In this document: positions 22,655 to 52,754 of the stretch, piece after piece
Numbering within the stretch: position 1 is the stretch's first letter
Layout of the letters: every line of letters begins with the position of its first letter
Source of the DNA: Pyrobaculum sp. WP30
GTDB taxonomy: Archaea; Thermoproteota; Thermoprotei; Thermoproteales; Thermoproteaceae
Length of the DNA stretch: 64,000 nt
Direction: 5' to 3'
Assembly: GCA_001189275.1 (NCBI GenBank)
Contig: CP012158.1
Location: 372,001-436,000 of the forward strand
Position numbers and translations under genes: made by a program
The notes under the pieces: model-generated
Databases searched by the model: none
What the model was told of the DNA's origin: nothing
The model's input: only the letters and a program-made list of their open reading frames with translations

Positions 22655-23320
22655 ATGAAACTAGGTGCAAAATCTCTGGACACCAAGGGCAAGGGCGTCC
22701 CCTTCAAGTTCTACACCGCGTACTACGTCTCTACCTACAGCCGCAGGAAGGCGTACACGCTGAGGGAGCTTCTTGAGGGCGTCAAGACCGCTGACAAAAA
22801 CACGTTGTTTCACCACGTCTTCCACGCCGTGAGGGCGAAGCATCTACTGCCGCCGAGGTACAACAACGACTTCGCCCGGTGGGTTGGGGAGGAGGTGGGC
22901 GACGAGGAGCTGGCGGCGGCTTTGTCGGACATCTCCGGCGCCGAGCCGGCCACGATCGAAGACATAAGGAAGGAGATAGTGGCGATACTTGAGCCCGCCG
23001 CCGACGAGAGGCGCGGCAGATCTGAGTTCGTCTTCGTGGGGATGGAGCCGGTTGTGGTGGAGACTAAATACGTGGCCCACACCCTCGCCGAGTTTCTCGA
23101 CCTAGTCGAGGTGGTGCCCGGCGAGTCTATACTCTACCACTTCGTCACCAGGAGGGTGCTGCGTAGCGCGGGGAGGAACGACTTCTCCACGTGGCTGGAC
23201 AAAAACTTCGGCCTCGCGGAGGTGGCCGACGAACTGTCGAGGATAGACCCCCTGGCCTTCAACAGCGAGGAGGCGCTGAGAGAGGCCATATTGACGGTGC
23301 TTAAGAAGAGGCTGTTATGA
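22655..23320 (+). CDS. DUF5752-like protein upstream of treT, internally duplicated
   Basis: This 221-residue protein is of the type often found directly before trehalose glycosyltransferring synthase genes. It is built from two related halves of about 95 residues (roughly 35-125 and 127-220): each contains an aromatic strand, a TL-x-E-[FL]-L helix start, an FHHVF or YHFVT helix, then NDF-x-x-W and a closing helix with EAI or KEIVAIL. Its function is unknown; the 4-bp overlap with treT (ATGA) implies equimolar production and perhaps a complex. It has a TATA box near 22624-22634. Confidence 0.75.
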   Translation: MKLGAKSLDTKGKGVPFKFYTAYYVSTYSRRKAYTLRELLEGVKTADKNTLFHHVFHAVRAKHLLPPRYNNDFARWVGEEVGDEELAAALSDISGAEPATIEDIRKEIVAILEPAADERRGRSEFVFVGMEPVVVETKYVAHTLAEFLDLVEVVPGESILYHFVTRRVLRSAGRNDFSTWLDKNFGLAEVADELSRIDPLAFNSEEALREAILTVLKKRLL

Positions 23321-50055: not shown

Positions 50056-51654
50056 ATGCCGAATCCAAACCCACTTCTCCCACTAAGCGCGCTTGGCATA
50101 TATTTCCACGCCATATATATCACGCTGACGTTCGGCCTGCCCGTGGCAATCGGCGTGATGCTGTGGAAGTATTGGAAGACAGGCGACAAAGACTTCTACA
50201 AAGCAGCACGCCTAATGACCGCGGTGTTGGCTGTGAACTTCGCGTTAGGAGCCATAAACGGCACCCTCGTGGAGTTCGGCTGATGGCGAGATTTACGCCG
50301 GGCCAAATCTGCACCAGCCACCTTCGCCTTCGCGCCGCTAGCCCTTGAGCTCATCGCCTTCTCCAACGAGATAGCCTTCCTCATCCTCTTCATTGTGACA
50401 TTGGGAAGGGTGAGGCCGCCGGTTAGCCTCGCCATCTTGGCCCTCTATGCCGTTTTTGCCTACTTCTCCGGGGTGCTGATCACCGCCGTCAACAGCTGGA
50501 TGCAGGCGCCGTGGGGTGTGGGGCCTGTGGCTCATGTGCTGTATCCCTTCATGCCGGAGTACGGCCCCAACGCCGTCGACGTGCCGAAGCTCGTGGCCGT
50601 CAAGCTGGCCGCCGTGGCCACCGGCCAGCCCATCTCGCTCATCGTGGAGAAGCCCGGCGTGGCGCAGGCGGTGGGCATAGTGCTGAAGGACCCCATGGTT
50701 GCCCTCTACAGCCCCTACGCGCTTGTCTCAATCTTCCACAACATAATAGCCGCCATATTGATCGGCCTCGCCGTGGCCACCGCCGGCTGGGCCTTTAGGT
50801 ACTTCAAGACAGGTGACCAGAAGTATCTAAAGATTGTAAAGCCGCTTGCCGGCGTCTTCGCCGTGATCTTCGTAATTCAAGCACCCATCGTGGCGCACTT
50901 CATGGGCGAGGCAGTGGTGGAGTACAACCCCACCAAGTTCGCCCTGATGGAGGGCGCCGAAAAGACCTTCCACGACCCCATCATAGCACTTGTGGCATAC
51001 GGCGACCCCAACAAGCCCATCGTCGGCTTTGACCAGTTTGAAAAGGCCTGCCTCAGCCACGGCAACACGACAGTAGGCGACTTGATGAAGGCGGTGGGCC
51101 TCCCCAACACGTTGACTCTCCAAAGCGCGGGTCTTACCGTTGACTTCTCCAAGATCGCTTCTGTAAAGCTGGCTGACTTGTGTCTACAGGATGTGCAGAA
51201 GGCTAAGGCGTATATGCCACTGATACACACGGCCTACTACACAAAAGTCGCATTCGCCATCATCGGCGGCTTGGCGGCGGCTGTGCTCTTCTTCTACTTC
51301 TACAGAGTGCCGGGCTTGAGCGCGTTGGCTACCGCAATAGCCAGGGTCTTTGGCGACGAGAGGCGGAGGGTGTTCATCCTCGCGCTCCTGCTGGTGCTAG
51401 GCACTGTGATACCGGCCGTGGCGGGCTGGTATGTGAGAGAGGTGGGCCGTAAGCCTTGGACTGTCTACGGCTTGTTGTACCCGTCTGAGCTCGTAACGCC
51501 CGTGCCTTACTCCACGAGCCCCGGCTTCCTCGCGTTTGCCTACTTGGTGATACTGGCCGTTAACATCGGCGGCCTCTTTGCCATGTATCTCGTGGCCACT
51601 AGGGAGTACAAGTTCCTCGAGTTGCTGAAGAAGGGCGCGGGGGTGAGGCAATGA
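50056..51654 (+). pseudogene. cydA: bd-type quinol oxidase subunit CydA, interrupted by a microinversion
   Basis: CydA oxidises quinol and reduces O2 at haem groups in the membrane. His18 in GIYFHAIYITLTFG matches the N-terminal haem ligand, and about nine membrane helices follow in a frame of 532 codons. The frame is cut by TGA at 50281-50283, followed by charged residues (WRDLRRAKSAP) where a membrane helix should be. Reverse-complementing 50279-50319 removes the stop and gives GLVQIWPGVNLAIS without changing length or frame. Both flanking parts are otherwise intact. As read, the gene yields a 75-residue stub, and a GTG at 50395 begins the remaining 419 codons. It overlaps its partner gene by 4 bp. 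Confidence 0.8.
50279..50319 (+). other. 41-bp inverted segment inside cydA
   Basis: The segment is bounded by short inverted repeats (GCTG near the left end and CAGC near the right, extendable to GCTGxTG with one mismatch) and is itself an imperfect palindrome with AGATTT/AAATCT in its arms. In the opposite orientation it encodes 13 in-frame sense codons joining F-G to T-F-A-F. Such structures favour template switching or inversion. Confidence 0.75.
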
Positions 51655-52754
51655 ACAGCGCAGTTTTCATAGGGTTCGCCGGCCTCGGCCTAGCCGTTGT
51701 TTTGCACATAGTCTTCACCGCGATGACGCTCGGCACAGGCCTCCTCGCCGCTTTGTATAGATGGAAGGCGTATAAAGAAAACGACGCCTGGGCTGAGCTG
51801 TTCGCCAGGAGAGTCTTCAAGGTGTTGATTGTCTCTGAGCTCTTCAGCGGCGTCTGGGGCACCATAATCACCGTCTTCTTAGCTGGCTTCTTCACAGCTC
51901 TGACGACCCTCGCCACCGACGCCCTTTTCATCCCAATCGCCATCGCCATAGCCTCCATAATGATTAGGATACCGACCATTGCTATAAGCTGGTACACATG
52001 GGGCAAGATAAATCCGAGGACTCATTCCCTAATTATGTGGATAATGGCGTTGTCCGGCTTCGGCGTGCCTTTCGGCTTCCGCGCCATATTCGCCGAGATT
52101 AACAACCCGACGGCGGTGGGGTACTACCTCCAGACCGGTAAAAACCCTGGCTGGATGCCCTACGCCGATCCGCTTTTCTGGACGTTGTACCTCCACACAG
52201 TCGCCGCTGTCATTTCGGTAGGCGGCTTCGTGGCGGCTAGCTTAACTGCGCTTGAGAACGACGTGAGGGGCGTGAAGGCAGGTCTTACGTTGGGCTTCGG
52301 CTTCCTCACCGCCCAGCTGGCGTTTGGGCCTCTCTACTGGTACTCCCTCGACCTGTATTCGCCTCTGCTCTTCAAAGCGGTGAACACCACCTACGGCCCG
52401 TTGTTTGGCGTAAAACTCGTGGCCGTGGCGGCGCTTGTCGTCCTCGGCTACATGGCCCTTAAGTCCGCCAGGGCCGGGGCGATCCACCCAGCTACCAAGT
52501 GGCTTGCTCCGCTTGCGCTCTTCGTCGTCGTCGCAGGCGAGATTCTCAACGACGGCGCGCGCTACCCCAACATGGTGTTGGCCGGCGACAAGGGCCTCCC
52601 GGCGACGCTTTTCGCCAACTTCTACATGGATATCCCAATGCCCGCCGTCTACGTCATCTTGGCGTTTCTAATTCTATCAGTTGTGGTGTTCACCACGGCG
52701 GCCTTCTACGCACTGTACAGAAGATTCATAGCGGAGATACCTGAAACTGAGTAA
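51651..52754 (+). CDS. Second bd-type oxidase subunit (CydA-prime/CydB-like)
   Basis: The 367-residue membrane protein has about nine helices. Its N terminus AVVLHIVFTAMTLGTGLLAA places His19 like the haem ligand of CydA rather than resembling the DGFDLG start of CydB, so it seems to be a CydA paralogue, the CydAA-prime arrangement reported for archaea. It overlaps cydA by 4 bp. It would form the membrane heterodimer with CydA; if CydA is truly broken, this subunit is orphaned. Confidence 0.8.
   Translation: MNSAVFIGFAGLGLAVVLHIVFTAMTLGTGLLAALYRWKAYKENDAWAELFARRVFKVLIVSELFSGVWGTIITVFLAGFFTALTTLATDALFIPIAIAIASIMIRIPTIAISWYTWGKINPRTHSLIMWIMALSGFGVPFGFRAIFAEINNPTAVGYYLQTGKNPGWMPYADPLFWTLYLHTVAAVISVGGFVAASLTALENDVRGVKAGLTLGFGFLTAQLAFGPLYWYSLDLYSPLLFKAVNTTYGPLFGVKLVAVAALVVLGYMALKSARAGAIHPATKWLAPLALFVVVAGEILNDGARYPNMVLAGDKGLPATLFANFYMDIPMPAVYVILAFLILSVVVFTTAAFYALYRRFIAEIPETE

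What the first reader, a model, noticed from the sequence alone, without database searches (positions are those of the whole stretch)
50279..50319. 41-bp microinversion breaks the bd-oxidase gene cydA
The cydA frame carries TGA at 50281-50283 followed by a run of charged residues in a membrane region. Reverse-complementing exactly 50279-50319 removes the stop, keeps length and frame, and gives GLVQIWPGVNLAIS joined to TFAFAPLALE, a hydrophobic helix. Thirteen sense codons in a row by chance are unlikely. The segment is bounded by GCTG/CAGC and is an imperfect palindrome, which suits inversion or template switching. It could be an inactivating mutation, a reversible on/off switch for aerobic respiration, or an assembly or sequencing artefact.
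Basis: seen in the sequence. Interest (0 to 1): 0.88.

Follow-up and report, generated by a model that had tools for sequence, protein, structure and literature searches.

The report
35-bp microinversion breaks cydA gene
In this Pyrobaculum-like archaeon a 35-base piece of one oxygen-reductase gene (cydA) has been flipped end for end, which creates a stop codon; relatives show the unflipped version, so it is most likely a recent one-off loss-of-function mutation rather than an on/off switch.

Summary
The cytochrome bd subunit I gene (50056-51654, +) has an in-frame TGA at 50281-50283. Five intact orthologues from the same genus read EFGLVQ[I/V]WPGVNLAIATFAF where this genome reads EFG*WRDLRRAKSAPATFAF; about 14 further homologues have a similar hydrophobic reading. 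Reverse-complementing a segment restores the orthologous protein. An unbiased scan of the window recovered exactly that interval and no other.

The rest of cydA shows purifying selection like intact copies (branch dN/dS 0.087, range 0.05-0.13) and no second lesion, so the event is recent. It is probably a microinversion made by template switching or microhomology-mediated repair, inactivating one of two bd-oxidase operons; the second is intact and no heme-copper oxidase was found. A reversible switch is unlikely: the GCTG/CAGC arms lie one base off the inversion axis, and no usable repeat flanks the segment.

A consensus error cannot be excluded without reads. The assembly has likely errors, including a one-base frameshift in its only glycerol-1-phosphate dehydrogenase gene, but those are homopolymer indels. 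This is a clean example of a known mutation class.

The parts
50056..51654 (+). cydA1, cytochrome bd oxidase subunit I (532 codons when read through), interrupted
   Evidence: PF01654 hit with one internal TGA; 84-85% identity to intact genes in G003, G004, G005, G009
50281..50283 (+). in-frame TGA created at the left inversion junction (codon 76)
   Evidence: absent from all orthologues
50282..50316 (+). inverted 35-bp segment (best breakpoints; 33-41 bp on the same axis are near-equivalents)
50278..50280 (+). GGC, left arm of a 3-bp inverted repeat next to the inverted segment
   Evidence: such an adjacent repeat occurs at 5.6% of random 35-bp intervals
50317..50319 (+). GCC, right arm of the 3-bp inverted repeat; also the ancestral Ala codon left in place
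50395..51654 (+). downstream open stretch (419 codons from a GTG); would lack the N-terminal part of the protein
   Evidence: PF01654 positions 112-414 only
51651..52754 (+). second subunit of the operon (CydA-like), intact, overlaps the cydA stop
   Evidence: branch dN/dS 0.097

Best explanation
A single recent microinversion of 35 bp (50282-50316) flipped codons 76-87 of cydA1 in place, keeping length and frame but creating TGA at codon 76 and replacing a hydrophobic membrane stretch by a charged one. Shown: the inverted segment, the ancestral reading in relatives, and the absence of other decay in the gene. Inferred: that it is present in the organism's DNA; that it arose by polymerase template switching or microhomology-mediated repair within a weak quasi-palindrome; that it inactivates this operon's oxygen reductase; and that loss is tolerated because a second bd operon is intact and the organism probably lives anaerobically.
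For: Intact orthologues in G003, G004, G005, G009 and G010 read EFGLVQ[IV]WPGVNLAIATF. Inverting 50282-50316 gives FGLVQIWPGVNLAIATFAF, identical to G003, G004 and G005 there, and raises nucleotide matches to four orthologues from 249 to 312 of 384. The scan flags that interval alone. The gene has no other stop or gap in 532 codons; branch dN/dS is 0.087 (bootstrap 0.052-0.134), against 0.071 and 0.124 for intact lineages. Second bd operon intact, no COX1 match. cydA1 is undetected or decayed in other genomes of the genus. Human-chimpanzee microinversions of 17-33 nt are mostly pure inversions next to repeats as short as 3 nt (PMC8755829).
Against: No reads were available, so presence in the living organism is untested. 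The assembly has other likely consensus errors. The repeat and hairpin signals used for the mechanism are near what chance gives (5.6% and 6.9% of random intervals; fold z -0.84).
Confidence: 0.76

Rival explanations
1. Assembly or consensus artefact: the organism carries an intact cydA1 and the 35-bp segment was flipped during amplification, sequencing or assembly, for example through a self-priming hairpin.
For: cydA1 otherwise evolves like an intact gene. The same assembly has a one-base frameshift in its only glycerol-1-phosphate dehydrogenase gene, which should be essential, and two more apparent homopolymer-associated frame breaks in 196 kb, so the consensus is not error-free.
Against: Those other defects look like small indels at homopolymers, a different kind of error. 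A clean 35-bp inversion that keeps every base is not a usual consensus error, and no second one was found in 196 kb.
Confidence: 0.19
2. Reversible on/off switch: the segment flips by recombination and phase-varies aerobic respiration.
For: Frame and length are kept and the rest of the gene is under selection, as a switch would require.
Against: Invertons are described as flanked by 10-40 nt inverted repeats bound by an invertase (PMC11892184). Here the longest flanking repeat (GGCTG/CAGCC, 5 bp) is on axis 100597, while the inversion axis is 100598, and on that axis the flanks have no run of complementarity. Recombination between inverted repeats across segments under 33 bp is argued to be physically impossible because of DNA stiffness (PMC8755829). 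No orthologue carries the inverted state.
Confidence: 0.03
3. Stop-codon readthrough or recoding gives a functional variant protein with the WRDLRRAKSAP sequence.
For: The frame stays open after the single TGA.
Against: None of the homologues listed has this sequence. It places a charged stretch where all of them are hydrophobic, and inversion accounts for all of it at once.
Confidence: 0.01

Closest known systems
Microinversions distinguishing human and chimpanzee genomes (PMC8755829)
   Same: In-place inversions of a few tens of bases, with flanking repeats as short as 3 nt at or near the breakpoints
   Different: Archaeal, inside a coding gene, 35 bp (theirs are 17-33 nt), and here the repeat association is near chance
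Template-switch spacer inversions in yeast coding genes (PMC8604942)
   Same: Inversion of coding DNA within an inverted repeat, attributed to intermolecular template switching
   Different: Theirs are 2-5 bp changes within arms longer than 9 bp and change one or two residues; this one is 35 bp, with minimal arms, and makes a stop
Invertons and intragenic invertons (PMC11892184; Chanin et al. 2024, known here only as cited)
   Same: Inversion within or next to a gene that alters its reading
   Different: Invertons are reversible, enzyme-driven and flanked by 10-40 nt repeats; none of that is seen here
Lost or decayed cydA in other genomes of the genus
   Same: Loss of this bd oxidase recurs: a remnant with several stops in G001, no match in G002, G006, G007 and G008
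   Different: Here the gene is complete apart from one inversion

Membership tests
Microinversion (in-place inversion of tens of bases) | Segment matches the reverse complement of the orthologous segment, with length and flanks kept | tested here: met
Microinversion (in-place inversion of tens of bases) | Relatives share the other orientation, so the direction of change is known | tested here: met
   five orthologues uninverted
Microinversion (in-place inversion of tens of bases) | Present in the organism's DNA rather than only in the consensus | not testable with these tools
   no reads and no second isolate; the restored 32-bp pattern occurs once in the genome, only at this place and on the opposite strand
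Template-switch event at a quasi-palindrome | Inverted repeats at the breakpoints beyond chance | tested here: inconclusive
   adjacent 3-bp repeat, 5.6% by chance; internal 6-bp repeat, 6.9% by chance; fold z -0.84
Inverton / phase-variable switch | Inverted repeats of about 10-40 nt flanking the segment on the inversion axis | tested here: not met
   longest is 5 bp, off axis
Inverton / phase-variable switch | Both orientations present in a population | not testable with these tools
   no reads
Inverton / phase-variable switch | Invertase acting on the site | not tested
   no invertase search was made
Cytochrome bd oxidase subunit I (PF01654) | Full-length domain match | tested here: met
   198.5 bits over positions 7-414 when read across the stop
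Pseudogene under relaxed selection | Raised dN/dS or further lesions on this branch | tested here: not met
   dN/dS 0.087, no further lesions; hence a very recent loss if real

The most novel reading that the evidence does not exclude
The 35-bp segment flips reversibly without long inverted repeats, giving a minimal phase switch for a terminal oxidase in a hyperthermophilic archaeon.
Probability: 0.03. Interest if true: 0.8.

Novelty: new member of a known kind. Interest (0 to 1): 0.32.

Why it matters
If real, it is a base-resolved example of gene inactivation by microinversion in an archaeon, caught before further decay, which would show that such events occur in hyperthermophiles. It also warns that a gene called nonsense or frameshifted may in fact hold an inversion, and that predictions of oxygen use from the presence of cydA should check that the gene is intact. 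A library search for 'microinversion' together with 'archaea' found no archaeal case; that search is limited to openly licensed papers and to that wording.

Tried and rejected
Flip across GCTG/CAGC arms: rejected, wrong axis by one base. Strong cruciform or hairpin: not significant. Second copy of the ancestral orientation elsewhere in the genome: none. Independent sequence of the site in viral contigs: none. Named genomes: only distant homologues returned. Apparent stop at 23302: outside the conserved part of the relative's ORF, not a broken gene. Apparent second inversion at G000:C1:725577: a shadow frame over the 3' end of 16S rRNA, judged by eye from the sequence. TAG in a second cydA of G009: homology runs unbroken over the gene, so it is taken to be the terminal stop. 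Microinversions between the close pairs G003/G009 and G004/G005: none in 35.5 and 22.5 kb aligned. The genome paper of P. yellowstonensis is not held in the library.

Full report
What is there. The window is G000:C1:372001-436000 of a single-contig genome of 1,993,257 bp. The size and single contig resemble Pyrobaculum yellowstonensis WP30 as I remember it; this was not tested. cydA1 runs from 50056 to 51654 on the + strand, 532 codons, with one in-frame TGA at 50281-50283. It is followed, with a 4-bp overlap, by a second, CydA-like subunit that is intact.

Test against relatives. Orthologues in G003, G004, G005 and G009 are 84-85% identical, and G010 is 71% identical; none has a stop. All read EFGLVQ[I/V]WPGVNLAIATFAF where this genome has EFG*WRDLRRAKSAPATFAF. 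The paralogous CydA of this genome and homologues across the order have a similar hydrophobic reading, for example EFGLLEIWPTSILLF. So the ancestral state is known, and no other genome searched shows the inverted state.

Exact extent. I scored every inversion interval around the site against four orthologues. The 41-bp version turns a conserved Ala into Ser because it also flips the GCC codon, which is already in the ancestral state.

Age. Outside the segment the gene looks intact. Pairwise dN/dS with orthologues is 0.08-0.10. On the branch to this genome it is 0.087 (bootstrap 0.052-0.134), against 0.124 and 0.071 for the two intact lineages; the second subunit gives 0.097. There is no second stop or gap in the 532-codon alignment. 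The inversion is therefore recent on the scale of species divergence, or absent from the organism.

Mechanism. In the restored sequence there is a weak quasi-palindrome, GGC-7-AGATTT-10-AAATCT-7-GCC, with axis sum 100597; the inversion axis is 100598. A 3-bp repeat lies next to the breakpoints with an offset of one base. Such an adjacent repeat is found at 5.6% of random 35-bp intervals in this window, and an internal 6-bp repeat at 6.9%; DNA folding gives z -0.84 and -1.20. This fits, but does not prove, template switching or microhomology-mediated break-induced replication. Both are discussed for human-chimpanzee microinversions of 17-33 nt, which have flanking repeats down to 3 nt (PMC8755829); template switching is also invoked for yeast spacer inversions (PMC8604942).

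Why not a switch. Invertons are flanked by 10-40 nt inverted repeats (PMC11892184). No orthologue shows the other state. Reversibility is left at 3%.

Artefact. To judge consensus quality I compared 364 kb of this genome (the window plus C1:436001-736000) with stretches of relatives; 196 kb was covered at 60% or better amino-acid identity. No other microinversion was credible; one flag was a shadow frame over the 3' end of 16S rRNA. Three probable frame breaks turned up at or near homopolymers. One is in the only copy of an NAD(P)-glycerol-1-phosphate dehydrogenase gene (the G005 homologue's best NCBIfam match is that family, below its curated cut-off). That enzyme is expected to be essential for archaeal lipids, so this one is probably a sequencing error. 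The assembly is thus not error-free, but these look like indels, not inversions. I put the artefact at 19%.

Consequence. Without readthrough the product ends after 75 residues. A downstream start would give at most 419 residues, lacking the N-terminal quarter of the conserved domain. No COX1-family oxidase was found, and one second bd operon is intact. Loss of cydA1 recurs in the genus: a decayed remnant in G001 and no match in G002, G006, G007 and G008, the last two being fragmented assemblies. A published study states that no Pyrobaculum is known to respire oxygen with CydA and predicts a related MAG to be an aerotolerant anaerobe (PMC8579995), so loss of one copy may be tolerated.

Verdict. 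A real feature of the sequence, correctly spotted and here refined to 35 bp; most likely a recent inactivating microinversion. It is a known kind of mutation, neatly resolved, with modest wider interest unless reads show both orientations.

Noticed in passing
G000:C1:660862-660864 (L091 about 4862): The only NAD(P)-glycerol-1-phosphate dehydrogenase gene has a one-base frameshift at AAAAAACC; as the enzyme should be essential for archaeal lipids, this is probably a consensus error (or, less likely, programmed frameshifting).
   Followed up: partly
G000:C1:450316-450337 (L080 about 14316): Apparent frame break in a CbiM-like gene near short homopolymers.
   Followed up: partly
G000:C1:512541-512558 (L083 about 16541): Apparent frame break in poly-G in a gene 86% and 74% identical to its G005 counterpart on either side.
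   Followed up: partly
G001:C1:792530-792727 (L017): Remnant of cydA with several stops: an independent loss of the same oxidase in the genus.
   Followed up: no
window 51651-52754: The second subunit of the operon matches the CydA family (PF01654) and no other Pfam family: a CydA-like pair, as in the second operon at C1:1882055-1884344.
   Followed up: partly
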